A stretch of 64,000 bases of DNA. Origin: Duganella sp. BuS-21 (GTDB lineage Bacteria > Pseudomonadota > Gammaproteobacteria > Burkholderiales > Burkholderiaceae_D). Positions 1 through 12,442 of the stretch are shown here, in pieces; the first letter of the stretch is position 1; each line of letters begins with the position of its first letter. Location of the stretch: the NCBI GenBank assembly GCA_041874725.1, contig CP097466.1:1922001-1986000 (forward strand), read 5' to 3'. The notes below the pieces were generated by a model. That model saw nothing but the letters and a program-made list of their open reading frames with translations, did not search any database and had not been told where the DNA came from. A program made the translations under genes and the position numbers.

Positions 1-140
1 ACCGCTTCCTGCGGCTCCAGCTGCATGATGGGGCAGTGCGCCAGCATGTTGGCGACGGCGGCGTCATCGTCGGAGTTGCGCAGCAGTTGCAGGTCGCTGA
101 CCCGGTAGTTCGAAGAACCGAATGTGCTGATGTGTTTCAA
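1..140 (-). CDS. Start of a probable cyclic-nucleotide-binding-domain protein (partial)
   Basis: Only the first 46 codons are inside the window; the gene runs off the left edge. The reading begins at a TTG codon (138-140) with GAAAGAA a few bases upstream and an in-frame TGA just before that, so no earlier start is possible. The visible peptide starts (M)KHISTFGSSNYRVSDLQ and ends in CPIMQLEPQEA. The pattern 'leucine-rich helix, CPI, L, EPQE' resembles the opening of a cNMP-binding domain (Crp/cNMP family), where a Pro-containing turn is followed by L-x-x-G/Q-E. The family call is inference from this short piece; the C-terminal output domain is not visible. Confidence 0.5.
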   Translation of the reverse strand, partial: MKHISTFGSSNYRVSDLQLLRNSDDDAAVANMLAHCPIMQLEPQEA

Positions 141-291
141 GGCGTTCTTTCAGGATGCCGAAAGGCAATCAATCGTGGCTACAATCATAGCTGAAAGGAT
201 GTTGGCAGGTCACGCTTTGTACTGGAAGGGAAGTGTAAATTTTCCACAGCTTGTGGTTCAATACCGGCATCGCAATCTTTAGGGACACACC

Positions 292-1071
292 ATGGCTTAC
301 CTCGACGCGCTGGGCACCGAGCATCAACCCGCGCCGCAGGCGCGCATCGTCTCGCTGGTGCCGTCGATCACCGAGCTGCTGTGCGACCTCGGCTTGGCCG
401 CGCAGGTGGTGGGGCGCACCGGCTTCTGCATCCATCCCTGGGACACGGTGCAGGAGATTCCCAAGGTGGGCGGCACCAAGGACGTGAACCTGGAAAAGAT
501 CCGCAAGCTGGCGCCCACCCATGTGGTGCTGAATATCGATGAGAACGAAAAGCCGACCGCCGATGCGCTGGCCGAGTTCGTGCCGAACGTGGTGGTCACG
601 CATCCGCTGCGCCCGCGCGACAACCTGGAACTGGCGCGCTTGATGGGCGGCGTGTTCTGCCGCGAGCGCCAAGCGGCCGCATGGTGCGCCGCGTTCGAGG
701 CCGAGTACGCGCTGCTGCAGGCCACGCCGAAAGGGCCGCCGCAAACCATGTTGTACTGCATCTGGCAAGATCCGTGGATGAGCATTTCGCAGGACACCTA
801 TATCGCGCGCATGCTGGAGGAAATCGGCTGGAGCGTGCCGGACCTGGGCGACTCGCGCTATCCGGAATTCCGCTGGTCTTCGGAGTTGATCGACAGCGTG
901 GACGGCGTGCTGCTGTCGAGCGAGCCTTACCGCTACACGGAAGCGCACGCGGACGTGCTCGAGCGGCAGATCGGCAAGCCGGTGCTGCTGGTCGATGGCG
1001 AGATGATGTCGTGGTATGGCAGCAGGTCGCTGCAAGGCTTGCGTTACTTGCGGGAGCTGGCGCAACGTTAG
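292..1071 (+). CDS. BtuF-like helical-backbone metal receptor (ABC substrate-binding-type protein)
   Basis: A 259-residue protein of the periplasmic-binding fold class III (BtuF/FhuD/TroA-like). The N-terminal half carries the typical RIVSLVPSITELLCDLGL stretch (about residues 18-35), then VVGRTGFCIHP, IPKVGGTKDVNLEKI and LAPTHVVLNIDENEK, the pattern seen in cobalamin- or iron-chelate-binding proteins. No signal peptide is visible, although this family normally works in the periplasm with a BtuCD-type transporter, and no transporter genes are nearby. It may be a solitary cytoplasmic-looking member that is common in betaproteobacteria. AGGGAC lies 5-10 bases before the ATG. Family is confident; ligand (cobalamin, haem, other chelate) is unknown. 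Confidence 0.8.
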   Translation: MAYLDALGTEHQPAPQARIVSLVPSITELLCDLGLAAQVVGRTGFCIHPWDTVQEIPKVGGTKDVNLEKIRKLAPTHVVLNIDENEKPTADALAEFVPNVVVTHPLRPRDNLELARLMGGVFCRERQAAAWCAAFEAEYALLQATPKGPPQTMLYCIWQDPWMSISQDTYIARMLEEIGWSVPDLGDSRYPEFRWSSELIDSVDGVLLSSEPYRYTEAHADVLERQIGKPVLLVDGEMMSWYGSRSLQGLRYLRELAQR

Positions 1072-1099
1072 ATCAACGCCGGCAGCCCCCGCGGCGGGA

Positions 1100-1477
1100 T
1101 TACTCTTCGTCGACGTTGGCGACCACCGCAGCCGAGGCGGCGCCGACACCTTCGGCATGGCGTTTGTGATCATGCAGCTTGCCGACCGCCGTTTCGATTG
1201 AGCGTTTCAGCTTGTCGGTGGCGCCGCTGATGGCCTGGTGCAGCGTGGCCGCATGGTCGCTGACGGCGATCGGTTGCAGGCCGGTGAGACGGGCTTCCAT
1301 CAAGCAACGATTGTCGCCGTCGGCCGATTTCTGGCCCAGGTTGTCGCTCAGGTGCACTTCGACGCGGGTGATCTGCTCGCCGAAGCGGTGGAGGGCGTTG
1401 CTCACGACAGATTGCACATGTTCATCGAGACCCGCATGACGTTCGACGGTCTTGTCAGTATTAATTTGGATTTGCAT
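1100..1477 (-). CDS. HPF/RaiA-family ribosome-associated protein
   Basis: A 125-residue protein resembling the ribosome hibernation factor / sigma-54 modulation family (S30AE domain). It opens MQIQINTDKTVERHAGLDEHV and continues with RFGEQITRVEVHLSDNLGQKS, D-x-R-C-L-M-E-A-R and DLHQAI-like helix residues, the beta-alpha-beta-beta-beta-alpha layout of HPF. The start at 1477 is chosen because AGGAGC lies just upstream; a longer reading to 1534 has no ribosome site. The C-terminal tail after about residue 105 is Ala/Val-rich and not part of the domain. Members of this type in betaproteobacteria often have only weak similarity to E. coli HPF, so ribosome binding is inferred from the family. Confidence 0.75.
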   Translation of the reverse strand: MQIQINTDKTVERHAGLDEHVQSVVSNALHRFGEQITRVEVHLSDNLGQKSADGDNRCLMEARLTGLQPIAVSDHAATLHQAISGATDKLKRSIETAVGKLHDHKRHAEGVGAASAAVVANVDEE

Positions 1478-1552
1478 AAGCTTGCTCCTGTTGTTTGACT
1501 GCGAGACCATCTTACTCCTTCCCGCCTTAAGCACGCGTTAATTTCCTAACGC

Positions 1553-1900
1553 TCAAGCTTGCTGCAAATAGAAGCGTAACGCCCAGCCTGTAAGAATAAG
1601 CGAGGCGACGATGTTGACAAGCGCCAGCGAACGTTGTTGCCGAAACGGCAGATTGAGTGCGCTAATCGATGCTGCTACGCCTTGCCACATCAATGCAACT
1701 AGCAATCCGATTCCATAGAAGTGCATCGCAGGCGACTGCGCAAGCGTGGGATGTAAGAAGACCAGTGTGCCGGATAACACGATCGGCGTTAATGCCACCA
1801 GCGACAAGGCGGCGCTATTGCGCGCGCTGCCTGCAGGAAGGAGCAAGCCTGATAGAAGACCGGCACTGGCACCCAAAGTGAGAAAGCCTAGACTGTGCAT
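1553..1900 (-). CDS. Small four-helix membrane protein of unknown function
   Basis: A 115-residue, highly hydrophobic protein with about four transmembrane segments (roughly residues 3-22, 29-48, 60-80 and 91-112) separated by short polar turns (AGSARNS, NLPFRQQR). No signal peptide, no recognisable motif. It is divergent from the three-gene cassette that starts at 2036 and shares that cassette's lower GC by eye, so it may belong to the same transferred segment. I do not recognise the family. Coding is supported by the intact frame, ATG start and sensible membrane topology. Confidence 0.55.
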   Translation of the reverse strand: MHSLGFLTLGASAGLLSGLLLPAGSARNSAALSLVALTPIVLSGTLVFLHPTLAQSPAMHFYGIGLLVALMWQGVAASISALNLPFRQQRSLALVNIVASLILTGWALRFYLQQA

Positions 1901-1995
1901 AAATATCTGTAACTATGTATATTGCTACGATGCGCTTGCTGGTGGAAGGTTCTGCCGATTGGTAGCCGTCCGATGACAGCAAGGGTACAATTTGG

Positions 1996-2012
1996 AAACT
2001 TATCATAAGTTT
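1996..2012. promoter_or_regulatory. 17-bp palindrome, candidate operator for the cassette at 2036
   Basis: Perfect inverted repeat AAACTTAT-C-ATAAGTTT, with 8-bp arms, 23 bases before the ATG at 2036. A TACAAT hexamer at 1986-1991 could serve as a -10 box, which would place the palindrome on or just after the transcription start, the usual place for a repressor operator. No good -35 was found. The palindrome is seen directly; the regulatory role is inference. Confidence 0.5.
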
Positions 2013-2035
2013 GACATTATTGCTATGAGGATCAC

Positions 2036-2656
2036 ATGATTCTAGAGGTGGTCGAAGACGTATCCAACGGGAAGTTGTTGCGGTGTTTGAAATTGCTGCA
2101 AGCTGACGATGTGCTGCTGATCGAGGCTGCAAGCAGGTCTTATCGACACCAGCTCGGGTTTCTCAAGCTTGTACTGATGACTGGCTTGGATGGCGCTTGC
2201 CTGCGGCTGCACGTATGGGACCGGCTGGTCAATCCAGTGGAGGATATTCACTCGCATTGCGCAGACTTTATGTCTCGCGTGGTGCTTGGTCGTTTAGAGG
2301 AAAATGCCTTTGAACTCGCGGGCGGGGAGACTCACGCACTTTTTCGTTATCATTTTGACGTGGACGCTGGTCATAGCGTGGCGGTCAAGGGTGGCCTTAC
2401 TGGTATTTGCCTGCGGGAGAGCCGCACTGTGTTTCAGGGCGAAGCTTACATTAAGCATGCCTTCGACTTACATAGCGTCGGCAATGTTGTGCCCGGGACA
2501 GTGACGGTCTCTGCATGGGGCGCGCGGAATGGCGAGGCTCTGGTGCTAAAGCCGCTTGACGCGGAGCCTGAGGATTGCGCTGCGGCCTCCGGTATGCCAG
2601 TCGAGCAGATGCGTGCGATGCTGGCTAACATTAAGGAAAGGCTGCTTCATACATGA
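2036..2656 (+). CDS. Putative cupin-fold metalloprotein, first gene of a three-gene cassette
   Basis: A 206-residue protein that I cannot assign to a named family. Residues 58-95 read LRLHVWDRLVNPVEDIHSHCADF then SRVVLGRLEENAFE. An H-x-H pair (72, 74) followed by a glycine turn and a Glu/Phe strand is typical of metal-binding cupins such as cysteine dioxygenases. Further histidines at 141 and 146 could complete a metal site. No signal peptide or membrane segment. GAGG at 2027-2030 precedes the ATG. Its stop codon overlaps the next start (ATGA), so it is translationally coupled to the dCTP-deaminase-like gene. Base composition is lower in GC than the flanking housekeeping genes. Function unknown; fold call is inference. 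Confidence 0.6.
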   Translation: MILEVVEDVSNGKLLRCLKLLQADDVLLIEAASRSYRHQLGFLKLVLMTGLDGACLRLHVWDRLVNPVEDIHSHCADFMSRVVLGRLEENAFELAGGETHALFRYHFDVDAGHSVAVKGGLTGICLRESRTVFQGEAYIKHAFDLHSVGNVVPGTVTVSAWGARNGEALVLKPLDAEPEDCAAASGMPVEQMRAMLANIKERLLHT

Positions 2657-3489
2657 TTCTTCCTAGCCAGGAAATCAAGATGCTGTCGGAATACCGGCCT
2701 CATGACCCTTTACGTTTGATTACTCCTTTCGATAAAGACAATCTGCGCGGCAGTTCCTATGATTTGACCGTGGGGGCGGAATACTACGTTGGCCGAGATT
2801 TTTCTGCCTCCAAACTATCAACCGAGCAACTGACTCCTGGACAGTCCTTCACCATTCCTCCTCACGCGGTCTGCTTTATTTTGTCGACGGAATTGATTGA
2901 ACTGCCGAAAAATATAACGGCAAAAGTTTCGCTAAGGATGACGCATATCTATGCGGGAATGGTGCTTACTTCGCAGCCGCCATTTGACCCTGGGTACAAG
3001 GGACGCGTGGTCGTGATGCTTCACAATCTGTCCTCGGAACCGTTCTATTTGCGCAGCGGTGACCGGCTGGCTACGATTGAGTTCGTGCGACTGTCGCTGA
3101 GCACTACAAATGCAAAACCGCATCGCTCGGTACAGACATTGCAAGAGCAGTTGCCCAAGCCGTTGGTGAGCAGCCTGTCTGACATCGCGAAAATTTCGAC
3201 TGCCGCAAGTCAGAAAGTCGATTTGTTTGCCGCCCAGATGATGACTGTTGTTGCCTTGATCGTTGCCGTGTTTGCGGTTCCTGGTTTTTTCTCCTTCAGT
3301 AGCCTGACTGATCGCTTGAACGAGCAAAAGGATCAACTGAAGGAAATGAAGGAGGAGGTTGAACGCAATAATGTCACCATCGCTGAACTCACCAAGCAGG
3401 TTGGAACATTGAAACAGAAGACGACCAGTCCCACGCTCAAAAAGCCGCCACATGACATCATAGTGAATATAGAAAATGGGAGTCGGTGA
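2653..3489 (+). CDS. dCTP-deaminase/dUTPase-fold protein with C-terminal membrane anchor and coiled coil
   Basis: A 278-residue protein with three parts. Residues 1-155 resemble the dCTP deaminase (Dcd) fold: LRGSSYDLTVG (31-41), a beta-rich middle, and the hallmark FDPGYKG (111-117) followed by HNLSSEPFYLRSGDRLATIEF. Residues about 191-214 form one hydrophobic membrane segment, and 218-256 a charged heptad-like coiled coil (RLNEQKDQLKEMKEEVERN). Hand alignment with E. coli Dcd puts Met122 where the catalytic Glu138 should be, and Tyr where Arg115 sits, so deaminase activity is doubtful. Ordinary Dcd is soluble and about 190 residues. It overlaps the upstream gene by four bases and the downstream ThiL-like gene by one. 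A nucleotide-sensing or scaffold role is inference. Confidence 0.7.
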   Translation: MILPSQEIKMLSEYRPHDPLRLITPFDKDNLRGSSYDLTVGAEYYVGRDFSASKLSTEQLTPGQSFTIPPHAVCFILSTELIELPKNITAKVSLRMTHIYAGMVLTSQPPFDPGYKGRVVVMLHNLSSEPFYLRSGDRLATIEFVRLSLSTTNAKPHRSVQTLQEQLPKPLVSSLSDIAKISTAASQKVDLFAAQMMTVVALIVAVFAVPGFFSFSSLTDRLNEQKDQLKEMKEEVERNNVTIAELTKQVGTLKQKTTSPTLKKPPHDIIVNIENGSR

Positions 3490-4529
3490 TGGTGACGATG
3501 TCAGATCTTGGCGAGAAGGCATTTCTCAAAGCGCTTTTACCTGAACTCCATGTGGCCCCGATGTTTGTCAATGGCTTCGGACACGATGCGAGTATTGTCG
3601 ATGTCGGGTTGGAGCAGTGCCTGGCTGTCAAGATCGACCGCGCAGCCTTTCCTGTGGCCCTGAAACATGGTATCGGCGACTACCGGACATGGGGGCGTCT
3701 GGCCGTCGCGGCTAATGTCAGCGACTTATTGGCCGTAGGTGCTGTACCGCGAGCGCTGATGTTGTCACTGGTCGTGCCTGGCACTTTTGAGGCAAGTGAT
3801 GCACGCGCCATCGTTAAGGGCTGCGAGGAAGCTTGCGCGTGGCACGACATCGCTTTCGTTGGCGGGGATACCAAAGAAGGTGACGCAGCCCAAGTTATAG
3901 GTTCCGCATGGGGCACGGTTGAAAAAAAATTCGCCTTCGGACGCGCCGCCGCCAAACCTGGGGACCGCCTATTCATCGCGGGACGCCTGGGCGCTTTTGC
4001 CGGAGTTCTGGCATTACTGGAGCTGGTATCTGCGCAAGAGCAAAATGTGCCGGATGAATGGCAAGAGATTCTCACCATACCAATGGCCCGTCTGCATGAA
4101 GGGAAGTACCTGCGTAAGTCACGCATGGTGGCCGCTGCTTGCGATCTGAGTGATGGCTTGGCGGATGCACTGCATATTTTCTGCGCCGACGGTGCCGGCA
4201 TTACTATCGCAGAAACCAGTTTGCCGTTGCATCAGCTCGCAAGTGAGGCATCCGTTAAGACTGGTGTTCCGCTTTGGCGGTTTGCATTCGGTGTAGGTGA
4301 CTGGTCGATAGCCTTGGTGGTTCACGATCAGGACGTGAAAGCATTCAAGCGCGCGATAACAGGGAAGTTGGAGTTGTTTGAAATAGGGCAGTTCAATAAC
4401 ACGGGACGCAAGATAATTCGCGACGCCTGCGGTGCGGATATTGAAGTGCCGGATCTGATTAATGAACAATTTCGCCGCCGCCTTGAGGACAACGGGTCGT
4501 ATTTGAAGGATCTGATGTACAGGTCCTGA
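3489..4529 (+). CDS. ThiL/PurM-like (AIR synthase-related) protein, third gene of the cassette
   Basis: A 346-residue protein of the PurM/ThiL/SelD/HypE ATP-binding fold. Visible marks are GHDASIVDVG (31-40, where ThiL has GDDAA), ANVSDLLAVGAVPRALMLSL (75-94), FVGGDTKEGD (123-132), KPGDRLFIAGRLGAFAG and CDLSDGLADALHI. The ThiL GGEDYEL site is changed to GVGDWSIAL. The start at 3489 is preferred over GTG 3486 because GGGAG at 3478-3482 is correctly spaced and TGATG overlaps the upstream stop. No thiamine genes are nearby. The motif changes argue against a plain thiamine-phosphate kinase; it may phosphorylate or cyclise another small molecule made with its two partners. Family confident, substrate unknown. 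Confidence 0.75.
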   Translation: MVTMSDLGEKAFLKALLPELHVAPMFVNGFGHDASIVDVGLEQCLAVKIDRAAFPVALKHGIGDYRTWGRLAVAANVSDLLAVGAVPRALMLSLVVPGTFEASDARAIVKGCEEACAWHDIAFVGGDTKEGDAAQVIGSAWGTVEKKFAFGRAAAKPGDRLFIAGRLGAFAGVLALLELVSAQEQNVPDEWQEILTIPMARLHEGKYLRKSRMVAAACDLSDGLADALHIFCADGAGITIAETSLPLHQLASEASVKTGVPLWRFAFGVGDWSIALVVHDQDVKAFKRAITGKLELFEIGQFNNTGRKIIRDACGADIEVPDLINEQFRRRLEDNGSYLKDLMYRS

Positions 4530-4532
4530 CTC

Positions 4533-5198
4533 TTAGCTGTTAATCAAGGAGGCGGCGATGTTGATCGACAGGCCGAGGATCGCCAGGTTGTAGAAGAAGC
4601 ACAGCACCGATTGCCCCAACACCACCTGGCGCAGGCGGCGGCTGCGCACCGTGACGTCCGAGGTCTGCACCGCCACGCAAATCGTGAACGAGAAGTAGAG
4701 GAAGTCCCAGTAGTTGGGCGTGAGCTGGCTGTCCGGGAAGCCGAGCGGCTTGTCGCCGGTTTCCTCCATGTAGTACAGGTGTGCGTAGTGCGAGCAGAAC
4801 ATCACACCCACCATGAACCAGGAGCCGATCAAGGTCAGCAGCCCGAGCGCGTAGCGCAGCGCCAGGTCGGCGCCGGTCAAGTCTTTAACGGTCGCCAACT
4901 GCGAGACGATGGCCGCCAGGCTGACCAGCACCGCCAGCGACAGCACGGCCAGGATCACCGGCCCCCGTTCATCCTGGCGGCAGGCGGCGCGCTTGATGTC
5001 GTGGTGGTCGGCCTTCATCATCATCCAGGCCATCGTCAGCAGATAGGTCCAGACCAGGATGTCCCAGCATGCCAACAGCTGCGTCATCCATGACCAGGCG
5101 GCCGGCAGCAGCGGGCCGGCCAGCAGGCCCAGCACGACGGCCAGGCTCAGGTGCGGACGGCTGTGGATGATGGACGGCAGCGCCAGTGTCGGCTTCAT
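4533..5198 (-). CDS. DUF1345 family integral membrane protein
   Basis: A 221-residue protein with about five to six membrane segments. The C-terminal part, with YMEETGDKPLGFPD and NYWDFLYFSFTICVAVQTSDVTVRSRRLRQVVLGQSVLCFFYNLAILGLSIN, matches the DUF1345 layout, where the pattern DFxYFSFxxGxxxQTSDV recalls the pore-helix region of two-TM potassium channels. Function of the family is not established. The ATG overlaps the stop of the upstream MFS gene by four bases (ATGA), so the two are co-transcribed and probably translationally coupled. It converges with the cassette ending at 4529, leaving only three bases between stops. Confidence 0.8.
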   Translation of the reverse strand: MKPTLALPSIIHSRPHLSLAVVLGLLAGPLLPAAWSWMTQLLACWDILVWTYLLTMAWMMMKADHHDIKRAACRQDERGPVILAVLSLAVLVSLAAIVSQLATVKDLTGADLALRYALGLLTLIGSWFMVGVMFCSHYAHLYYMEETGDKPLGFPDSQLTPNYWDFLYFSFTICVAVQTSDVTVRSRRLRQVVLGQSVLCFFYNLAILGLSINIAASLINS

Positions 5199-6436
5199 TT
5201 TTTATCCTCGTGCGGGAAGCGGTCCATGCGCGACAAGGCCGGGAACAACAAGGTCCAGGCCCCCACCACGGCCAATGTTGCCGCGCCGCCGAACAGGATG
5301 GCGCGCGTCAACCCCAGCCAGCCGGCGGTGATGCCCGATTCAAATTCGCCCAGCTCGTTCGAGGCGCCGATGAACACCGAATTGACCGCGCTGACGCGGC
5401 CACGGATTTCATCCGGCGTTTCGTATTGCACCAGCAGGTGACGCACGTAGACGCTGATCATGTCGCCGGCGCCCATCAGGAACAGGGCCACCAGCGCGAC
5501 GATGAAGCTGGTGGTCGCGCCCAGCACCAGCGTGCCGACCCCGAATACCGCCACGCCGCCCAGCATCCATGCGCCGACCCGTCGCGTGACGGGGAAGAAG
5601 GCGAGGGCGATCGAGCACAGCGCCGCGCCCGCGCCCGGCGCCGTGCGCAAGGCGCCCAGTCCGCTCGGGCCGATGTGCAGCACATCGTGCGCCAGCGCCG
5701 GCAGCAGGGCGGTGGCGCCGCCGAACAGCACGGCGAACAGGTCGAGCGAGATGGCACCCAGCACGATCTTGCGCGACCACACGAAGCGCAGCCCTTCCAG
5801 CACCGTGTGCCACGAAGCCGGCCCGCTGGCGCTGGGCTGCTTGACCGATTTCACCATCGCCATCATCACCACCGACGCCAGCAGCAGGACCGAGGAAACC
5901 ATATACACCGTTTTCGGTCCGGCCAGGTAGAACAGGCCGCCCAGCGTCGGTCCCACGATCACGGCCACGTGGAAGCTGGAGGAGCTCAGCGCCACCGCCT
6001 TGCTGAAGCTCTCCTGCGGCACCAGGTTGACCAGGATGGCCTGCGTGGCCGGCCCCATGAAGGCGCGCGCGCTGCCGTACAGCACCAGCACCGCGAACAC
6101 CGGCCACACGGCCGTCAGCCCGGTGCTGGTGTAGCCGAGCAGCATCAGGCCGCATACCAGCTGGGCGCCGAGCGAGAGCGTGATCAGGGTGCGGCGGTCG
6201 TAGCGGTCGGCGGCGTGGCCGGCGATCAGGATCAGCAGCAGGAACGGCAGGAACTGCGCCAGGCCGATCAGGCCGAGGTCGAACAGATTGTGCGTCATCG
6301 AATAGACTTGCCAGCCGATGGCGACGTTTTGCATCTGGACGGCCAGGGTGGCCAGGGTGCGGGCGGAGAGGTAGAGCGTGAAGTTGCGGTGGCGCAGGAC
6401 GCTGAAACCGTTGGAGGAGGAAGTACTCGATGACAT
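5195..6436 (-). CDS. MFS transporter of the EntS/MFS_3 type
   Basis: A 413-residue major facilitator with twelve predicted helices. FSVLRHRNFTLYLSARTLATLA at the start, AGHAADRYDRRTLI in the loop between helices 2 and 3, and GPATQAILVNLVP and IGASNELGEFESG later are characteristic of the enterobactin-exporter-like MFS_3 family, which moves siderophores or drugs out of the cytoplasm. The start at 6436 is chosen because the domain begins shortly after it; a longer reading to 6559 would overlap the upstream reductase and adds only a low-complexity Ser/Pro tail. It lies upstream of, and overlaps, the DUF1345 gene. Substrate cannot be inferred. Confidence 0.8.
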   Translation of the reverse strand: MSSSTSSSNGFSVLRHRNFTLYLSARTLATLAVQMQNVAIGWQVYSMTHNLFDLGLIGLAQFLPFLLLILIAGHAADRYDRRTLITLSLGAQLVCGLMLLGYTSTGLTAVWPVFAVLVLYGSARAFMGPATQAILVNLVPQESFSKAVALSSSSFHVAVIVGPTLGGLFYLAGPKTVYMVSSVLLLASVVMMAMVKSVKQPSASGPASWHTVLEGLRFVWSRKIVLGAISLDLFAVLFGGATALLPALAHDVLHIGPSGLGALRTAPGAGAALCSIALAFFPVTRRVGAWMLGGVAVFGVGTLVLGATTSFIVALVALFLMGAGDMISVYVRHLLVQYETPDEIRGRVSAVNSVFIGASNELGEFESGITAGWLGLTRAILFGGAATLAVVGAWTLLFPALSRMDRFPHEDKK

Positions 6437-6506
6437 TCGCGCTTTCGGGGAGCAGAGCCTGGGGGACTCTGCATCCCCGTCAGCCCTGCCGTTGGGTGGG
6501 GTGCTG

Positions 6507-7532
6507 TTACTGGTGGATATCGGCTTCGGTGGTGAAGGCGTCGGCGTAGAACTCTTCATCCGGCAAGCCGCATAGGGCGACGAAATCCTGCTTCGCCGAT
6601 TCCACCATGATCGGGGCGCCGCAGGCGTAGACCTGGTGGCCGGACAGGTCGGGCAGGTCGGCCATCACGGCCTGGTGGACGAAGCCGCTGCGACCGTCCC
6701 AGTGGTCTTCCGCCAGCGCGCCGGAGATCACCGGCACGTAGCGGAAGTTCGGCAGCGTGGCGGCCCACTCGCGGCACAGCGCGTCCATGTACAAGTCCTG
6801 CGGGCGGCGACCGCCCCAGTACAGCGTCATGGCACGCTCGGCACCTTGGGCGCGCAGGTGCTCGACGATGGCCTTGATCGGTGCGAAGCCGGTGCCCGAG
6901 GCCAGCAGCACCATCGGCTTGTCGGAATCCTCGCGCACGAAGAAGGTGCCCATCGGGCCTTCGAAGCGCAGAATGTCGCGTTCCTTCATGGTGCTGAACA
7001 CCTGGTCGGTGAACAGGCCGCCCGGCAGGTGGCGGATGTGCAGGGCCAGCGGCTGGTCCTGGTCCGGCGGGGTGGCGATGCTGTAGCTGCGGCGCTTGCC
7101 GTCGCGCAGCATGAATTCGATGTACTGGCCGGCGCGGAATTTCAGCGTTTCATTGGCCGGCAATTGCAGCGTGATGACGATGACGTCCGGCGCCATTTTT
7201 TCCAGCGTCGCCACGCGCGACGGCATCTTGCGGATCGGGTACTCGTCGCTGCCCGCCACTTCGCGCGCTTCGATCACCAGGTCGCCCTGGGTGGTGGCGC
7301 AGCACAGCAGCGAGAAACCGGCCGCTTCCTCGTCCTTGCTCAGGGCCCGTTCCTGGTGCGACTTGTGGGTGACCGAGCCGGAAACGATCTTGCCTTTGCA
7401 GGAGCTGCAGGCGCCGTTCTTGCAGCCGTAAGGCAGGCCGACGCCGGCGCGCATGGCCGCCGCCAGGATGGTTTCGTCCGCCTCGCAGCTGAATTGATGG
7501 CCGCTGGGCTGTACAGTTATTTGAAACGTCAT
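6507..7532 (-). CDS. CDP-6-deoxy-delta-3,4-glucoseen reductase-like ferredoxin/flavin reductase
   Basis: A 341-residue soluble electron-transfer enzyme. Residues 1-90 are a plant-type 2Fe-2S ferredoxin domain with CKNGACSSCKGKI (cluster cysteines C-x4-C-x2-C) and a fourth Cys in FSLLCCATTQGD. Residues about 100-200 form the FAD domain with KRRSYSIATPP, and the rest is the NAD(P)H domain with LLASGTGFAPIKAIVEHL and YACGAPIMVESAK. This domain order is that of AscD/E3-type reductases and oxygenase reductase components. In betaproteobacteria this protein is widely annotated as the deoxysugar reductase without a sugar pathway nearby, so its electron acceptor is uncertain. The start is set at MTFQITVQPSG; its ATG is 12 bp from a divergent start. 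Confidence 0.85.
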   Translation of the reverse strand: MTFQITVQPSGHQFSCEADETILAAAMRAGVGLPYGCKNGACSSCKGKIVSGSVTHKSHQERALSKDEEAAGFSLLCCATTQGDLVIEAREVAGSDEYPIRKMPSRVATLEKMAPDVIVITLQLPANETLKFRAGQYIEFMLRDGKRRSYSIATPPDQDQPLALHIRHLPGGLFTDQVFSTMKERDILRFEGPMGTFFVREDSDKPMVLLASGTGFAPIKAIVEHLRAQGAERAMTLYWGGRRPQDLYMDALCREWAATLPNFRYVPVISGALAEDHWDGRSGFVHQAVMADLPDLSGHQVYACGAPIMVESAKQDFVALCGLPDEEFYADAFTTEADIHQ

Positions 7533-7545
7533 ACAATCTTTCAGA
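7509..7545 (+). promoter_or_regulatory. Possible leaderless promoter of the SDR gene
   Basis: A near-consensus -10 box TACAAT at 7532-7537 stands only seven bases before the ATG at 7545. CTGTAC at 7509-7514 is a weak -35 at 17-bp spacing. Transcription starting six to eight bases after the -10 would begin at or next to the A of the start codon, and no Shine-Dalgarno sequence precedes the ATG. The promoter lies inside the first codons of the divergent reductase gene. Inferred from sequence only. Confidence 0.4.
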
Positions 7546-8435
7546 TGAAAAACCTTAAAAATCACAAAATCGACCGGCCCCGGCTGCTGATCGTCGGCTG
7601 CGGCGATGTCGGCATGCGCCTGTTGCCGCTGTTGCGCGGGCGTTTCCGCGTGTTTGCCACTACCAGTCAGCAGGAGCGCTGCGCCGAACTGCGCGCCGCC
7701 GGCGCCGTGCCGCTGGTGGCCAACCTGGACGATCCGGCCAGCTTGCGCCGCCTGACCGGGCTGGCGCGGTGGGTCATCCACCTGGCGCCGCCGCCGGCCG
7801 ATGGCGTACTGGATAGCCGCACCCGTCATTTGACCGCTATTTTACCCGAGCAAGCGCGCATGGTTTATGTCAGCACCACCGGTGTCTATGGCGACTGCGG
7901 CGGCGCGCTGTTCGACGAGAGCCGTCCGGTGGCACCGCGCAACGCCCGCGCGCTGCGCCGGGTCGACGCCGAGCGCACCCTGCGGCGTTGGGCCACCCGC
8001 AGCGGGGCGGCGCTGTCCATCCTGCGCGTGCCCGGGATTTACGCCGAAGACCGCCTGCCGCTCAAGCGTTTGCAGCAGGGCACGCCGGCGCTGGTCGAGG
8101 CCGACGACGTGTACACCAACCACATCCACGCCGACGACCTGGCCGCCATCATAGTCCGCGCGCTGTTCGGTGCGCTACCGAACCGTATCTATCATGCGGT
8201 GGATGACAGCGACATGAAGATGGCGCACTATTTCGAGGCGGTGGCGGACGCCTTCCAGATGTCCCGGCCGCCGCGCCTGCCGCGTGCCGAGTTGCAGCAG
8301 GTGGTCACGCCGGCGCTGCTGTCGTTCATGTCGGAATCGCGCCGTCTGCGCAACGGCCGCATCAAGCGCGAGCTTGGCGTACGGCTGCGTTACCCTACTG
8401 TGGGCAGCCTGCTGGGACTGTTGCGAAATCGGTAA
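7545..8435 (+). CDS. NAD-dependent epimerase/dehydratase (extended SDR family)
   Basis: A 296-residue Rossmann-fold protein. LLIVGCGDVGMRLLPLL (about 14-30) is the dinucleotide-binding glycine motif, VIHLAPPP follows beta-4, and MVYVSTTGVYGDCGGALFDES carries the Ser/Thr and Tyr of the catalytic region, although the usual Y-x3-K is not obvious. NHIHADDLAAIIVRAL and YHAVDDSDMKM are typical of the YeeZ/SDR_a-type family. No ribosome-binding site precedes the ATG; a -10 box ends eight bases before it, suggesting a leaderless message. The gene is divergent from the ferredoxin reductase with a 12-bp gap. Substrate unknown. Confidence 0.8.
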   Translation: MKNLKNHKIDRPRLLIVGCGDVGMRLLPLLRGRFRVFATTSQQERCAELRAAGAVPLVANLDDPASLRRLTGLARWVIHLAPPPADGVLDSRTRHLTAILPEQARMVYVSTTGVYGDCGGALFDESRPVAPRNARALRRVDAERTLRRWATRSGAALSILRVPGIYAEDRLPLKRLQQGTPALVEADDVYTNHIHADDLAAIIVRALFGALPNRIYHAVDDSDMKMAHYFEAVADAFQMSRPPRLPRAELQQVVTPALLSFMSESRRLRNGRIKRELGVRLRYPTVGSLLGLLRNR

Positions 8436-8474
8436 ATATATGTAAAGAAGTAAATATAGTTAAACTATTGCAAT

Positions 8475-8491
8475 AGCCGCGTCGGCTTTTT
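8475..8491 (+). terminator. Weak terminator after the SDR gene
   Basis: A short hairpin AGCCG-CGT-CGGCT followed by TTTT, 40 bases past the stop at 8435. The stem is only five pairs, so strength is doubtful. The surrounding 8436-8585 is AT-rich and holds no gene. Confidence 0.35.
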
Positions 8492-8585
8492 GTGCCAAAA
8501 TTGCAAGCTGACGCGTTTGATCCTTCTCAATAAATCCGCTGCGTAATACGATATTGTTAGCCATCTTCCTTTAAGGAGTGCGTCC

Positions 8586-8837
8586 ATGGTCGCCAGTTTG
8601 CAGCCAACCAAGGAGCAGGTGCGGGCCTATATGCACCAGCGACAGCGTGAGTCTTGCCGCCGTCCGCCCCCCATGCCTGAAGAAATCCGCCGCCAGCTGG
8701 GCTGGCACCTCAGCGCTGACAATACCGATCACTGTTCCACCACCACGTTGTTCCTCCCAGGCACGATCGCCCAATTGGCCGCCTTGATGGCCGTTGAATG
8801 GTGTTTCCTTGCCGCCGGCCTTGGCCGTCCCAGCTGA
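8586..8837 (+). CDS. Small hypothetical protein
   Basis: An 83-residue protein beginning MVASLQPTKEQVRAYMHQRQ, with a helical, Arg-rich first half (PPPMPEEIRRQLGW) and a hydrophobic C-terminal helix. A clean AAGGAG at 8572-8577 sits eight bases before the ATG, which is the main support for it being expressed. I do not recognise a family. It stands alone between AT-rich intergenic regions, ahead of the small HTH-like gene at 9100. Antisense ORFs over the same stretch lack ribosome sites and are rejected. Confidence 0.6.
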   Translation: MVASLQPTKEQVRAYMHQRQRESCRRPPPMPEEIRRQLGWHLSADNTDHCSTTTLFLPGTIAQLAALMAVEWCFLAAGLGRPS

Positions 8838-9099
8838 ATCTTTACATGGTTTGATACCTTTTTTTACAACAAAAAGTGCCATAGCATAAAAAATAGGGTT
8901 AGAATCTCTCTAAATCTCACCGAAATGTATTCCGAGTTAGCCGTTTTGTAACGGAAACGTGTATTATCTCGGTTAAGCACTAAAAACCGGCATAAATGTC
9001 AGTGTTTTGTAGTGCTCCAATGGTAATTGAGCTAAAAATTTTTCTTACCCATGTGTCGTTTTTTTACAAAAATTCGACAGCGAACCTACTTAAAACGCC
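8838..9099. other. AT-rich leader region upstream of the small HTH gene
   Basis: A 262-base stretch without a credible gene. It contains several A/T runs and is clearly lower in GC than its neighbours. No consensus -35/-10 pair was convincing, and no clear ribosome-binding site precedes the ATG at 9100. It may hold a long 5' leader for that gene; nothing more can be supported. Confidence 0.4.
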
Positions 9100-9339
9100 A
9101 TGTCTCTCAAAGAAATCACCGCGTCGCCGACGTATAACCCGAACCGCGTGCTGGACGCCATCATTGAAAAGCTGCAGCTGAAAAACGATGCAGCCTTGTC
9201 GCGCGCGCTGGAAGTGGCCCCACCGGTCATCTCGAAAATCCGCCACAACACGCTGCCGATCGGCGCGACCATCCTGATCCGCATGCACGAGATCAGCGAT
9301 TTCAGCATCCGTGAACTGCGCGAGATGATGGCCTCCTGA
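9100..9339 (+). CDS. Small helix-turn-helix-like protein
   Basis: A 79-residue protein, almost all helix. The segment NDAALSRALEVAPPVISKIRHNTLPIGATILIRMHE (about 28-63) has the spacing of a Cro/CI-type helix-turn-helix: a helix with A-L-S-R-A-L, a turn, then a recognition-like helix P-x-I-S-K-I-R. It ends with DFSIRELREMM. Similar small proteins are common as single genes in Oxalobacteraceae (from memory, not checked). The 260-bp upstream region is strikingly AT-rich compared with its surroundings and could hold a strong promoter. A strong terminator follows directly at 9355, so it is a one-gene transcript. DNA binding is inferred. Confidence 0.7.
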   Translation: MSLKEITASPTYNPNRVLDAIIEKLQLKNDAALSRALEVAPPVISKIRHNTLPIGATILIRMHEISDFSIRELREMMAS

Positions 9340-9354
9340 GTCAGGATATCCATG

Positions 9355-9394
9355 AAAAACGGCGCGTCACCGCAAGGTGACGCGCCGTTTTTTT
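9355..9394 (+). terminator. Strong rho-independent terminator
   Basis: Stem GGCGCGTCACC / GGTGACGCGCC around a GCAA tetraloop, flanked by AAAAAC on the left and followed by eight T. It ends the transcript of the small HTH-like gene whose stop is at 9339. Confidence 0.9.
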
Positions 9395-9411
9395 TGAGTT
9401 CATTGCGGTTA

Positions 9412-9576
9412 GCGGGGGAAGACGGGGTTGACGTTGCCTGTCGCTTTAACAGCACGCGGCACCGACCCAACCCGCACACCGCTGCGGCCAGGGTCAGACC
9501 CTGTGGGGTCTGACCCTTTCGTTCGGGGTGCTGTTAAGGACGACGGTTGAGTCGCCAACGAGTATTCATCCTGGCC
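9412..9576 (+). repeat. Dispersed repeat family A, copy 1
   Basis: About 165 bases whose core is ACCGCTGCGGCCAGGGTC, then a hairpin of AGGGTCAGACCC and GGGTCTGACCCT. Copy 2 (12684-12848, opposite strand) matches over the full length with about 22 mismatches counted by hand. Shorter copies lie at 43446-43585 and 50291-50376. No open reading frame or transposase is inside. Nature unknown; a small non-autonomous element is one possibility. Confidence 0.8.
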
Positions 9577-9608
9577 ACCCGAAAGCCGCCTTTTTTGCGC
9601 CCGGCGTT

Positions 9609-9815
9609 TCAGGCCGAGGTGCTGATGGTGGTGCCGATGCGCTGGCCGCTGGTGTTGACGGTCGGCGCCACGGCCGCTTGCGGCGGCGGTGGTGGCGGCG
9701 GCTGCTCGACGCGTTCGGCCGGCTTGTCCACCGCTTTCACCTGCTCAGGCTGGCGGGCTGGAATGGCTTGCTGAACTGCGGCGTTGTTGCTGGGGGCGAC
9801 GGTATTGACGGCCAT
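9609..9815 (-). CDS. Small proline-rich hypothetical protein
   Basis: A 68-residue low-complexity protein: MAVNTVAPSNNAAVQQAIPARQ, then ERVEQPPPPPPPQAAVAP and a Ser/Thr-rich tail. The GGGAG six to ten bases before the ATG supports translation. No signal peptide or membrane segment. The poly-proline run and polar composition suggest a disordered peptide. It lies downstream on the same strand of the AHSGV-repeat protein, 70 bases away, and may be co-transcribed with it. Function unknown. Confidence 0.5.
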   Translation of the reverse strand: MAVNTVAPSNNAAVQQAIPARQPEQVKAVDKPAERVEQPPPPPPPQAAVAPTVNTSGQRIGTTISTSA

Positions 9816-9885
9816 GATGTACTCCCATCTTCTTCAGACCCTTGAGTATGCCACTTTTTTCAGCATGTCGCCGCTTTTTTCCGCC

Positions 9886-10509
9886 TCAGTTCGACAACGG
9901 AAGGCGCGGGCGCTGGCTGTAGAAGCTCGACTGCCGGGCCGCCGCGATCACCTCCGCAGCCTGCGCCGCGCTGGCGCCGATCACGCCCGAGTGGGCCGTT
10001 TTGGCGCCGATCACGCCGGAATGGGCGAACTGTACGCCCACCACGCCCGAGTGCGCGAAGCTGGCCGGGCCGGCTGCCACGCCCGAGTGTGCCGGATTGG
10101 CGGGCGCGGCGTCGCGCAGATAGTCCTCGCCGAAGGTGTCTTCGTACAGCTGCTTCATGCGCATGCCGAGGCGGAGATGGGCCGCTTCGTCATCCTCGCC
10201 GCGCAGGCCGATGTATGGGAAGTGGTGCAGGAAGTGGCCGAACGCGGCGTCGCAATCGGCCGCGTATTTCATGGTGTCCAGGATGTGGTAGTGCCAAAAA
10301 GTATCGACGTCCACCAGCGGCGCGCTCGGTTCGTTGGGGAACTTCTTCATCAGGATCAGGAAACGGCGGTATTCGAATTCCACGGCGTTGGCGCGTTCCA
10401 GCGTCCAACCTTCTCCCGACTCCTCGTGCATCAACTTGACCTTGATCGGCTCCAGGTCGAGGGCGGCGATGGCGTGCATGGCTTGGGCATTCATCTGTTG
10501 GGCGTTCAT
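9886..10509 (-). CDS. GRDP-like domain protein with C-terminal AHSGV repeats
   Basis: A 207-residue protein. Residues 1-125 resemble the 'glycine-rich domain-containing protein-like' family, with VEFEYRRFLILMKKFP, then VDTFWHYHILDTMKYAADC and FGHFLHHFPYIGLRGEDD; the WHYH and HH clusters could bind metal. From about residue 138 the protein carries four copies of A-H-S-G-V spaced by short linkers (PAHSGVAAG, FAHSGVVGV, FAHSGVIGA, TAHSGVIGA), ending in an Ala-rich tail. The start at 10509 is set by AAAGGAAA upstream; a longer reading to 10560 lacks one. The repeats recall a multi-core precursor or a structural repeat, but no maturation enzyme is adjacent. Function unknown. Confidence 0.65.
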   Translation of the reverse strand: MNAQQMNAQAMHAIAALDLEPIKVKLMHEESGEGWTLERANAVEFEYRRFLILMKKFPNEPSAPLVDVDTFWHYHILDTMKYAADCDAAFGHFLHHFPYIGLRGEDDEAAHLRLGMRMKQLYEDTFGEDYLRDAAPANPAHSGVAAGPASFAHSGVVGVQFAHSGVIGAKTAHSGVIGASAAQAAEVIAAARQSSFYSQRPRLPLSN

Positions 10510-10618
10510 CAGAATTTCCTTTGAAGTATTGATGCGGGTTGAAAAAAGCGGCGTACGCATTTGATTTTGCCCTTAGGAGATAGGTTTTCCTTGATGTTAA
10601 TCAATGTTTTAATGGAAA

Positions 10619-12442
10619 TTAAATTCCCAGGTCAACCATTCCCATCAGGGTGGTGCGCGCGGCGTGGGCGCCGACCGGCACCGTCACCGCCACCGTGGTG
10701 CCGGCGTTGGCGCTTCCCGTGATGGAGCAGGTGCCGCCCAGCAGGCTGATGCGCTCTTCGATGCCCACCAGCCCGAAGGAGCCGGCCTTGTTGCGGCTGG
10801 CGTCGCGCACGCCGACGCCGTTGTCGTTGATGGTCATGCTCAGCATGCCGTCGGCCTGCCGCAGTTCCACCCGCACCAGGCTGGCGTGGGCGTGCTGCAG
10901 GATGTTGCTCAGCGACTCTTGCAGCACACGGAAGAAGGCGGTGGCGCAATGGTCGTCGACGCGGATTTCGGTCTCGTAGTCGATCAGCTCGCACACGATG
11001 CCGGAGCGCGCGCGGAACTGGGCGATCTGCCATTCGACGGCCGCGTTCAGGCCGAGGTCGAGCACGGTGGGGCGCAGGTCGTTGATGATGTGGCGCACGC
11101 TCTTGATACTGCTGTCGATCTGGCTCAGCATGCGCTGGGCGCGCGCGTGCAGGCGCGGGTGGCGGGTGCGGGTGCGGGTCGACAGCAGGTCGACGTCGAT
11201 GCGCAGCACCAGCAGGTTCTGGCCGAGGTCGTCGTGGATCTCGCGCGCAATGCGCTTGCGTTCGAGCTCCTTGATCTGGTCGGCGTGCGCGGCCAGCCGG
11301 CGCAGCTTGTGGTGCGACTGCTGCAGCTTGGCCTGGCTGTTGCGCAGTTCGCGCGTCATCTCCTTGGCCATTTTCACGGCCCGCATGCGCGACGACGCCA
11401 TGGTGTGGAACAGCAGGAAGAACAACAGCGCGCCGGTGAAGCCCGAGGCCATCGCCAGCCACGGCAGCGAGGCGTCAAAGCGGCTGTACCAACTGGTCTT
11501 GGGGGCGCTGAAGTGGGCGCTCCAGTGGCGGTTGTTGAAGTCGATCGGCAGCACCACGCTGAACAGTTCGTTGGGGCGCGGGAAGGCGCTGCCTGGCTTG
11601 CTGTCGAACAGCTGCAGCGGGGGGCGGTGGCCGCCGTCCTGGCCGTCGCCGCTGTCGGACAGCACCAGGCGGGCGTCGCCCACCTGCATCTGCTCCAGCG
11701 CCGCCTGCATCAGGCGCGGCACGCTGAAGCCGATGCCCACCGAGCCGATGTAGGCGTGGCGGCGCGCGGCCAGGGTGTCCAGCGGCAGGTTCTTGCGGTA
11801 GACCGGCAGCCGCAGCGCCAGTCCGGCGCCCAGCGGCTGGTGTACGCTGTCGATCTGCATGCCGGACGCGCTCAGGCCGCCGCTGTCGCGGCCCTGCGCC
11901 AGTGCGCGCGCCACCGCCGGCCGGTAGCCGATGTCGCGCCCTATCTTTTCGCGGAACGCGGCCAGTGGTTCGATCATCGTCAGCACCCAGTATTCGGGGC
12001 GCGCTTCCGGCGTCGAGATCGCGGTGGTCGCGGGATAGCCGAGCGCGGCGTCGGCGGGGCGCTGCCGCAGGCCGTGTTCGAAGGCGTCGCGTTCGGTGCC
12101 GGTGACATATTCGGCGTAGTTGATGTTGTCGAGCGCCGGGAACTGGCGCGTGATGTTGAGACCGTCGACGTAGCGGTGGAAGCTGGCGCGGTCCACATGC
12201 TCGGCGGCATGGAAGAAGCTGGCGGTGCCGCGCAGCACGTCGGTGTAGGCGTTGATGCGCGAATTGATGTTGTATTGCGCGTTCTGCGCCTGATGCAGGA
12301 AGCGCTCGCCGGCGTCGTATTCGATGGTTTTGTGGGCGGCAAGGTAGAACAGCCCGCCGATCCCGAGCGACAGCAGCACGCTGGCCCACCACACCGGCCG
12401 CGATGATGAGAGCAGCTGTCTCAGTCCTGGAAAAGCGGTCAC
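10619..12442 (-). CDS. CHASE-domain sensor histidine kinase (NarL-partner type)
   Basis: A 607-residue membrane sensor. A first membrane helix (about 17-36) is followed by a periplasmic CHASE domain (FFHAAEHVDRASFHRYVDGL, FPALDNINYAEYV, YPATTAI), a second helix near 325-347, a coiled-coil linker, a HisKA_3 dimerisation domain with the phosphorylated His in RKRIAREIHDDLGQNLL, and a HATPase_c domain (ESLSNILQHAHAS, INDNGVGV, GSFGLVGIEERISLLGG). It should phosphorylate a LuxR/NarL-type response regulator, but none is adjacent, so it is an orphan kinase here. Start is GTG at 12442 with AGAGGG and GGCAGG upstream. It lies between the two inverted copies of repeat family A. Confidence 0.9.
   Translation of the reverse strand: MTAFPGLRQLLSSSRPVWWASVLLSLGIGGLFYLAAHKTIEYDAGERFLHQAQNAQYNINSRINAYTDVLRGTASFFHAAEHVDRASFHRYVDGLNITRQFPALDNINYAEYVTGTERDAFEHGLRQRPADAALGYPATTAISTPEARPEYWVLTMIEPLAAFREKIGRDIGYRPAVARALAQGRDSGGLSASGMQIDSVHQPLGAGLALRLPVYRKNLPLDTLAARRHAYIGSVGIGFSVPRLMQAALEQMQVGDARLVLSDSGDGQDGGHRPPLQLFDSKPGSAFPRPNELFSVVLPIDFNNRHWSAHFSAPKTSWYSRFDASLPWLAMASGFTGALLFFLLFHTMASSRMRAVKMAKEMTRELRNSQAKLQQSHHKLRRLAAHADQIKELERKRIAREIHDDLGQNLLVLRIDVDLLSTRTRTRHPRLHARAQRMLSQIDSSIKSVRHIINDLRPTVLDLGLNAAVEWQIAQFRARSGIVCELIDYETEIRVDDHCATAFFRVLQESLSNILQHAHASLVRVELRQADGMLSMTINDNGVGVRDASRNKAGSFGLVGIEERISLLGGTCSITGSANAGTTVAVTVPVGAHAARTTLMGMVDLGI

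What the first reader, a model, noticed from the sequence alone, without database searches (positions are those of the whole stretch)
2036..4529. Undescribed-looking three-gene cassette: cupin-like + membrane dCTP-deaminase-fold + ThiL/PurM-like
Seen: three overlapping genes (ATGA and TGATG junctions), lower GC than the flanking genes by eye, and an upstream 17-bp palindrome. The three proteins belong to folds linked to nucleotide or cofactor chemistry (metal cupin, Dcd/dUTPase, PurM/ThiL), but none keeps the standard active-site pattern of the best-known member. Strict coupling argues for one shared function. Inference: a small-molecule synthesis or sensing system, possibly stress- or phage-responsive because Dcd-type proteins are known in nucleotide-depletion defence. 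This is the best candidate in the window for a new system.
Basis: partly seen in the sequence, partly recalled or inferred. Interest (0 to 1): 0.85.

Follow-up and report, generated by a model that had tools for sequence, protein, structure and literature searches.

The report
Mobile cupin, dead-deaminase, ThiL-like cassette
Three overlapping genes of unknown function, a metal-binding cupin, a membrane-anchored protein built like dCTP deaminase but without its catalytic residues, and an orphan relative of a thiamine kinase, travel together as one inserted block between distantly related bacteria and probably form a small-molecule or nucleotide sensing system that I found described nowhere.

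Summary
Three coupled genes (P1 2036-2656, P2 2653-3489, P3 3489-4529) form a real unit: same order in 6 of 6 loci compared, in Oxalobacteraceae, Pseudomonas, Bowmanella, Saccharospirillaceae and Ralstonia. The block (about 1546-4534) is an insertion: in 16 of 21 relatives the flanking HPF and DUF1345 genes lie under 200 bp apart. It also carries a small divergent membrane gene (1553-1900), found beside 3 of 6 cassettes. P1 is a cupin without Pfam match, with the three His of thiol dioxygenases in 36 of 36 homologues and relatives in giant phages. P2 is a dCTP-deaminase fold that lost the deaminase residues and gained a membrane helix. P3 keeps ThiL's ATP/Mg residues but not its His-Phe pair; all six genomes have a separate true ThiL. 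It is not a housekeeping operon, not in PADLOC, and seven literature searches aimed at it (open-access library) showed no description. Best guess, inferred: P1 and P3 make or alter a nucleotide-like molecule that membrane-bound P2 senses. A phage-defence role is possible on thin evidence. The unit is near certain, the mechanism is not.

The parts
1546..4534 (.). inserted block (boundaries approximate) between HPF/S30EA gene and DUF1345 gene; no transposase or integrase gene seen inside
   Evidence: blastn to relative G007: window 253-1545 and 4535-6266 align to neighbouring stretches there; HPF within the 1.5-kb flank of DUF1345 in 17 of 21 relatives, under 200 bp in 16
1553..1900 (-). sm: 115-aa hydrophobic protein, divergent from P1; optional fourth gene
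   Evidence: homologue at the same divergent position in L003 (45% identity over 76 residues) and L040/G021 (E 2e-17); not found in L004, L005, L006; no Pfam match
1996..2012 (.). perfect 17-bp palindrome AAACTTATCATAAGTTT, possible operator (unproven)
   Evidence: not seen upstream of the other five cassettes (by eye)
2036..2656 (+). P1: 206-aa cupin, 3-His type (H72, H74, H146)
   Evidence: AF2 model pLDDT 94; Foldseek PDB hits led by cysteine dioxygenases; His invariant in 36 of 36 homologues
2249..2257 (+). codons H72-S73-H74, HxH metal motif of P1
   Evidence: aligned with HDH of thiol dioxygenases (weak) and with HDH of phage homologues
2471..2473 (+). codon H146, third His of P1
2653..3489 (+). 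P2: 278-aa protein, dCTP-deaminase/dUTPase-fold domain (residues 1-147) and a long C-terminal helix
   Evidence: PF22769 E 3.8e-18; AF2 model; Foldseek 8y1w TM 0.90 on target length; catalytic positions replaced
3223..3291 (+). P2 transmembrane segment (about residues 191-213) inside the predicted helix 174-257
   Evidence: Kyte-Doolittle 19-residue maximum 2.49 at residue 191; helix H174-257
3489..4529 (+). P3: 346-aa ThiL-like AIRS-family protein with altered acceptor site
   Evidence: TIGR01379 158.9 bits, under its 184.15 cut-off; residues compared with six canonical ThiL

Best explanation
A horizontally exchanged cassette that works as one small-molecule system. Shown by comparison: the three genes are one inherited unit, inserted here between two host genes; P1 has a predicted cupin fold with the three His of a mononuclear metal site; P2 is a dCTP-deaminase/dUTPase-fold protein without the deaminase residues and with one predicted transmembrane helix; P3 is a ThiL-type protein with intact ATP/Mg residues and a changed acceptor site. 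Inferred: P3 phosphorylates or activates, and P1 oxidises or binds, a small molecule that is most likely nucleotide- or pyrimidine-like; the P2 domain, probably a trimer like other Dcd/dUTPase proteins, binds that molecule at the inner membrane and passes its state through the long helix, so P2 is receptor and effector rather than enzyme.
For: Unit: same order in 6 of 6 loci, overlapping or near-adjacent reading frames, correlated divergence (P1-P2 0.90, P1-P3 0.96, P2-P3 0.90 over 15 triplets; P2-P3 0.81 over 47 pairs), insertion with empty sites in relatives. Metal site: H72, H74, H146 in 36 of 36 homologues and in 3 of 3 phage relatives aligned. P2 pocket rebuilt under strong constraint: Met at the catalytic Ser position in 100 of 100 homologues, Met or Leu at the catalytic Glu position in 100 of 100 (95 and 5), Tyr at the Arg position in 98 of 100, while Q108, P109, P110 and D112 are 100 of 100 (columns mapped by hand). 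One strongly hydrophobic segment in a predicted 84-residue helix. P3: D33, D50, S78-D79, G125-G126-D127-T128, R152, D219-x-S221-D222 and D271 invariant in 28 of 28 and shared with canonical ThiL; the His-Phe of ThiL (6 of 6) is absent, and K48, R51, K129, E130 (28 of 28) are new.
Against: No substrate, product or ligand is known; nothing here proves a nucleotide ligand. Shallow alignments (19 and 30 rows) were used for the models and no complex was predicted. P1 could be a metal enzyme with an unrelated substrate; its superposition on solved thiol dioxygenases by Foldseek is loose (rmsd 5.6 A or more, TM on target up to 0.58). P2 could still be a hydrolase of the dUTPase kind: D112 and R95 are kept and 15 of 100 homologues carry a precomputed PF00692 dUTPase domain. 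The only functional parallel (a thymidylate-synthase-like gene beside a distant ThiL-like gene in G1882) is one locus. Nine of the 28 P3-like rows are distant (P0229 and below) and not tied to a P2 by contig.
Confidence: 0.35

Rival explanations
1. Anti-phage or other conflict system: P1 and P3 respond to infection (or make a signal) and P2 disturbs the membrane. This overlaps with the best explanation and differs in claiming defence.
For: Patchy, rare, horizontally moved, low GC. In P. palleroniana (L003) the cassette lies about 7 kb from a GajA-like fragment and near a MazG_C protein and an IrrE/CapP-like peptidase. In Ralstonia (L006) a protein about 2.5 kb upstream of P1 matches the PADLOC model DzbB at 2.3e-7. 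The same HPF-DUF1345 site holds a Fic-domain protein in two relatives, one with an AbiEi-like N-terminus. P1 has relatives in giant phages.
Against: No PADLOC match for P1-P3 (E up to 1). The four host genes around the cassette in this window are ordinary by Pfam. In L004 and L005 the one flanking ORF scanned in each had no PADLOC match, and the flank ORFs of G021 (L040) were only read, not scanned. The P2 deaminase residues that the known dCTP-deaminase defence needs are gone.
Confidence: 0.25
2. A short biosynthetic or detoxifying pathway for a pyrimidine- or thiamine-like compound (P1 oxygenase, P3 kinase, P2 membrane-tethered house-cleaning hydrolase), with sm as transporter or immunity factor.
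For: P1 and P3 keep the residues of real enzymes; P2 keeps D112 and R95 of the dUTPase pattern and 15 of 100 homologues carry a precomputed PF00692; sm is a small hydrophobic protein.
Against: Only three genes, no further enzyme or regulator recognised beside them, and no sm in 3 of 6 loci.
Confidence: 0.25
3. Toxin-antitoxin-like module with P2 or sm as membrane toxin and the others as neutralisers.
For: Small mobile coupled genes, membrane proteins.
Against: Two enzyme-like proteins of 206 and 346 aa are unusual for it; sm is missing in 3 of 6 loci.
Confidence: 0.07
4. Extra thiamine or nucleotide housekeeping genes (paralogues of ThiL and Dcd).
For: Public annotation calls P3 orthologues thiamine-phosphate kinase and P2 orthologues dCTP deaminase.
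Against: Own genome has a full ThiL (323.9 bits, over cut-off) and a full Dcd (159.7 bits, over cut-off) elsewhere; the five other genomes also have a canonical ThiL; P2 and P3 score below both NCBIfam cut-offs.
Confidence: 0.03
5. Unrelated passenger genes that happen to sit together.
For: None beyond general caution.
Against: Order and coupling kept in six loci of different families in different genomic sites.
Confidence: 0.02

Closest known systems
Thiol dioxygenases (cysteine dioxygenase PF05995, 3-mercaptopropionate dioxygenase, ADO/PCO)
   Same: Cupin fold; HxH and late His in register in a weak profile alignment; by hand, the same spacing from HxH to G-x-L-E-E and from the third His to V-S as in one thiol dioxygenase (L055, sequence); 4 of 19 P1 members match phrog_4786 'cysteine dioxygenase' at E up to 0.1, best 1.4e-4
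   Different: No PF05995 match for any of 19 members; Ser-His-Tyr motif not kept (S159, W161, A163 by hand alignment); hhalign to nine thiol dioxygenases only P 0.03, probability 1.6%
phrog_4784, uncharacterised proteins of giant Caulobacter and Brevundimonas phages
   Same: 15 of 19 P1 members match at E up to 0.1 (best 3.8e-6); shared GF, R-x-H-x-W, HxH, F-x-S, G, Y, H; hhalign P 6e-6, probability 85% to the Domovoi protein; among the best fold matches in BFVD. That these phage genes belong to phrog_4784 is inferred.
   Different: 18-20% identity; no annotated P2 or P3 like gene within 6 kb in the three phages read
dCTP deaminase / dUTPase family (TIGR02274, PF22769), nearest solved: Thermococcus pacificus dUTPase 8y1w
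   Same: Fold, SYDL and DPGY-G motifs, R95, R138
   Different: Ser, Arg and Glu of the deaminase replaced by Met, Tyr and Met; transmembrane helix added; below TIGR02274 cut-off (67.3 of 92.8 bits)
Thiamine-monophosphate kinase ThiL (TIGR01379)
   Same: ATP/Mg-binding acids, GGDT, DxSDG
   Different: ThiL His-Phe missing, first Asp of GDD is His in 24 of 28, new invariant K48, R51, K129, E130, N325, E326, R331, E333; below cut-off
Nucleotide-signal systems with membrane effectors (CBASS, type III CRISPR Cam1/Cap1, Panoptes)
   Same: Working analogy only: a ligand-binding domain joined to a membrane helix (titles and abstract starts seen in the listing; the CBASS membrane effector is recalled)
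   Different: No nucleotidyltransferase or CARF/SAVED domain was found in P1-P3 by Pfam, NCBIfam or PADLOC

Membership tests
Cysteine dioxygenase / thiol dioxygenase | cupin fold with three-His metal site | tested here: met
   fold by AF2 and Foldseek; H72, H74, H146 in 36 of 36; the three-His rule is from passages of PMC8503633. Metal geometry not measured.
Cysteine dioxygenase / thiol dioxygenase | match to PF05995 sequence profile | tested here: not met
   0 of 19 members at E up to 10, though HMMER filters drop most above 0.1
Cysteine dioxygenase / thiol dioxygenase | Ser-His-Tyr outer-sphere motif | tested here: not met
   hand alignment to the L055 sequence: S159, W161, A163; motif residues as given in the start of the abstract of PMC10966181 (listing); ADO and PCO also vary it (passage)
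Cysteine dioxygenase / thiol dioxygenase | thiol oxidation to sulfinate | not testable with these tools
   needs enzyme assay
dCTP deaminase (TIGR02274) | score over curated cut-off | tested here: not met
   67.3 of 92.8 bits
dCTP deaminase (TIGR02274) | catalytic Ser, Arg, Glu (E. coli 111, 115, 138; Ser and Arg recalled, Glu138 from PDB titles) | tested here: not met
   M96, Y100, M122; 100, 98 and 95 (+5 Leu) of 100
dUTPase (PF00692) | score over gathering cut-off | tested here: not met
   17.6 of 22 bits for the window protein; 15 of 100 homologues carry a precomputed PF00692 (table)
dUTPase (PF00692) | dUTP hydrolysis | not testable with these tools
   needs enzyme assay
ThiL (TIGR01379) | score over curated cut-off | tested here: not met
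   158.9 of 184.15 bits; the cassette copies in G021 and G344-G347 are also below
ThiL (TIGR01379) | ATP/Mg-binding acidic residues | tested here: met
   28 of 28 at D33, D50, D79, D127, D219, D222, D271
ThiL (TIGR01379) | His-Phe of the EGxHF motif, thought to line the acceptor site (role recalled) | tested here: not met
   H52-F53 in 6 of 6 ThiL; A57 (A 20, S 4, L 4 of 28) and L58 in P3
Known anti-phage systems (PADLOC 2.0.0) | match to any PADLOC protein model | tested here: not met
   0 families for P1, P2, P3 at E up to 1
phrog_4784 | profile match | tested here: met
   15 of 19 members, best 3.8e-6; the window protein itself only E 0.0017

The most novel reading that the evidence does not exclude
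A previously unnoticed bacterial signalling or immune system in which a three-His cupin and a ThiL-type kinase generate or police a modified nucleotide, and a catalytically dead, membrane-anchored dCTP-deaminase-fold protein is its receptor and effector; giant phages carry the cupin alone, perhaps to interfere with it or to make the same molecule.
Probability: 0.2. Interest if true: 0.9.

Novelty: categorically new. Interest (0 to 1): 0.66.

Why it matters
Public annotation hides the cassette under two misleading names (thiamine-phosphate kinase, dCTP deaminase) and 'hypothetical protein'. If the reading is right, it shows a deaminase fold turned into a membrane receptor, a ThiL-type kinase with a new substrate, and a cupin family shared with giant phages, and it points to an unknown small molecule. 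The three genes span about 2.5 kb, so expression, phage and metabolite tests are easy.

Tried and rejected

I considered that the palindrome marks an operator and dropped it as unsupported. I considered the Dcd nucleotide-depletion defence and rejected membership because the catalytic residues are absent. Promoter-like sites were 4 against 2.2 (sd 1.5) and terminator-like 2 against 3.6 in shuffles, so neither stands out. PF05995 was sought in 21 genomes and gave ten loci, of which nine (L046-L053, L055) were used and L054 was left out. In the genome searches with A3 only the best 5 to 8 first-look candidates of a genome were scored.
Full report
What is there. Three ORFs overlap head to tail: P1 2036-2656, P2 2653-3489, P3 3489-4529. 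The block from about 1546 to 4534 has GC 0.530 against 0.634 in the rest of the window and GC3 of 0.58-0.60 in its three cassette genes against 0.74-0.93 in four flanking genes.

It is an insertion. I looked for the DUF1345 gene next to P3 in 41 genomes (22 with a match, one of them the window's own). In 17 of the 21 relatives the HPF gene, which lies on the other side of the cassette here, is within the 1.5-kb flank: in 16 under 200 bp away by tblastn ends (about 30 bp in G007) and in one 759 bp away. Against G007, window 253-1545 and 4535-6266 align to neighbouring stretches, with no long match for the sequence between. The other four relatives carry different cargo at this spot: a Fic-domain protein in two (one with an AbiEi-like N-terminus), an alpha/beta-hydrolase-TPR protein in one and about 8 kb of other genes in one. 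So the site is variable. G021 has its own cassette elsewhere, downstream of an ssb-like gene (read from sequence), and an empty HPF-DUF1345 site. I saw no recombinase gene inside the block; a 23-bp imperfect direct repeat (83%) lies near both ends (1595-1617, 4542-4564).

It is a unit. Four loci were found by P2 and one by P1, so a locus without the other genes could have been found. Flanking genes differ from locus to locus. For homologues tied by equal contig length (47 P2-P3 pairs, 15 triplets), identity matrices correlate: P2-P3 r 0.81 over 47; P1-P2 0.90, P1-P3 0.96, P2-P3 0.90 over 15; each with 0 of 2000 permutations as high. Shared host ancestry adds to such correlations.

It is rare. 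A pattern-based scan of 84,980 species genomes gave 18 pattern stretches and 4 confirmed loci, a lower bound. The P3 profile matched 1 of 398 Pseudomonas, 1 of 299 genomes of the Ralstonia family, 1 of 398 of the window's phylum, 1 of 236 of the Bowmanella family and 2 of 234 of the Saccharospirillaceae order; each set was centred on a genome known to carry the cassette, which is one of the matches, and the sets may overlap. The only other match, G1882, is distant (180 bits) and has no P1 or P2 within the 18 kb searched. P2 matched 1 of 294 family members, the own genome, and P1 2 of 60 relatives. Homologous protein clusters in the 5.8-billion set: 36 for P1, 100 for P2 and 151 for P3 at E 1e-60 or better, of which 120 were listed.

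The fourth gene. A 115-aa hydrophobic protein, divergent from P1 (1553-1900), lies inside the insert. Homologues sit in the same divergent position in L003 (45% identity over 76 residues) and in G021 (E 2e-17); none was found in L004, L005 or L006. It is optional.

P1. No Pfam family is plausible for any of 19 members (five single chance-like matches, best E 0.084). The AF2 model has mean pLDDT 94.1. Foldseek's best PDB hits are B. subtilis cysteine dioxygenase and other thiol dioxygenases (E from 2e-6, TM on target up to 0.58, loose superposition); VIA-align agrees on a cupin but does not separate subfamilies. H72, H74 and H146 are in 36 of 36 homologues, as are R57, H59, W61, D62, E69, D70, S80, Y138 and W161. 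Thiol dioxygenases use a three-His iron site (passages of PMC8503633). By hand, the spacing from HxH to G-x-L-E-E and from the third His to V-S equals that of one thiol dioxygenase, in L055 (sequence), but the Ser-His-Tyr motif (start of the abstract of PMC10966181) is not kept. P1 also has phage relatives: phrog_4784 matches 15 of 19 members (best 3.8e-6) and phrog_4786 (cysteine dioxygenase) 4 of 19; in BFVD the three best models, one of them of Caulobacter phage CcrBL9 and two without names, match at E 2.5e-10 to 2e-9; aligned proteins of CcrBL9 and of Brevundimonas phages Domovoi and Gurke keep R-x-H-x-W, HxH, F-x-S and the third His, hhalign P 6e-6 for Domovoi. Annotation within 6 kb of these phage genes names no P2 or P3 like gene, but most genes there are hypothetical.

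P2. Dcd family by Pfam (E 3.8e-18), below the dCTP-deaminase cut-off, nearest solved structure a Thermococcus dUTPase (TM 0.90 on target). Against the genome's own Dcd (GKSTYARCG ... TLEF) the P2 stretch reads LRMTHIYAG ... VVML, so Ser, Arg and Glu of the deaminase are Met, Tyr and Met. Glu138 as a studied residue shows in PDB titles; Ser111 and Arg115 are recalled. Met96 is 100 of 100, Met122 is 95 with 5 Leu, Tyr100 is 98 of 100. The Thermococcus dUTPase also has Met at the Glu position, so that change alone does not mean a dead dUTPase; D112 and R95 are kept, and 15 of 100 homologues carry a precomputed dUTPase domain. The pocket is rebuilt and conserved, not decaying. A hydrophobic segment near 191-213 lies within a predicted helix 174-257. 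Topology (domain inside, helix tail outside) is inference.

P3. It aligns along ThiL but scores 158.9 of 184.15 bits. Against six canonical ThiL from the same genomes, the ATP/Mg residues are kept in 28 of 28 P3-like sequences (nine of them distant and not tied to a P2) and the His-Phe pair is lost; the loop that binds the ATP ribose-phosphate is described in PMC6416309 (passages). The own genome has a canonical ThiL at 323.9 bits and Dcd at 159.7 bits, and 5 of 5 other cassette genomes have a canonical ThiL. So P3 is very unlikely to be the cell's thiamine kinase.

How it may work. The enzyme-like residues of P1 and P3 and the rebuilt pocket of membrane-bound P2 fit a small-molecule system with P2 as receptor. 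That the molecule is nucleotide-like rests on the P2 fold and on one distant parallel: in G1882 a ThiL-like gene precedes a thymidylate-synthase-like gene (Pfam E 1e-10) in a stretch that also holds a NACHT protein. This is weak. Defence is possible: L003 lies near a GajA-like fragment and other accessory genes, L006 has a DzbB-like match 2.5 kb upstream, and the insertion site holds Fic proteins in two relatives. PADLOC has no match for the three proteins.

Literature. Seven full-text searches of the open-access library were aimed at the cassette, of which 49 and 50 returned no papers; three more were for residues of known families. I saw listings, and passages of two papers (PMC6416309, PMC8503633). 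In what I saw nothing described the cassette. Subscription papers and preprints outside this library are not covered.

Verdict. The claim of one mobile functional unit is near certain, the mechanism is open, and no known system that I tested covers it. I rate it categorically new as a gene system, with each part a divergent member of a known fold.

Noticed in passing
L064 (G1882:C4:220000-238000), 67-11706, minus strand: A distant orphan ThiL-like gene (8204-9304) followed by a thymidylate-synthase-like gene (7502-8179) and a 905-aa unknown protein, with YcjX/DUF697 genes upstream and a SLFN_AlbA_2-NACHT protein downstream: another gene set that joins a ThiL-like protein with a nucleotide-enzyme fold.
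   Followed up: partly
L041 1415-2986, L043 1659-3188, L042 12472-14013, L044 about 5.7-14 kb (same site as window 1546-4534): The HPF-DUF1345 gap is a variable insertion site in this genus, holding Fic-domain proteins, a hydrolase-TPR protein or a longer gene set in four relatives.
   Followed up: partly
window 1595-1617 and 4542-4564: Imperfect 23-bp direct repeat (83%) near both ends of the insert, at the 3' ends of the sm and DUF1345 genes; may be a recombination footprint or chance.
   Followed up: no
L065 5926-6669, L066 5878-6621, L067 5968-6705: Giant Caulobacter/Brevundimonas phages carry a P1-like three-His cupin of unknown function; in the two Brevundimonas phages it directly follows a gene annotated single-stranded-DNA-specific exonuclease.
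   Followed up: partly
L003 206-664 and 1318-5761: P. palleroniana: GajA-like fragment, MazG_C protein, C1 peptidase, IrrE/CapP-like peptidase upstream of the cassette.
   Followed up: partly
tables: Public records name several P3 orthologues thiamine-phosphate kinase and several P2 orthologues dCTP deaminase, which the residue comparison puts in doubt.
   Followed up: yes
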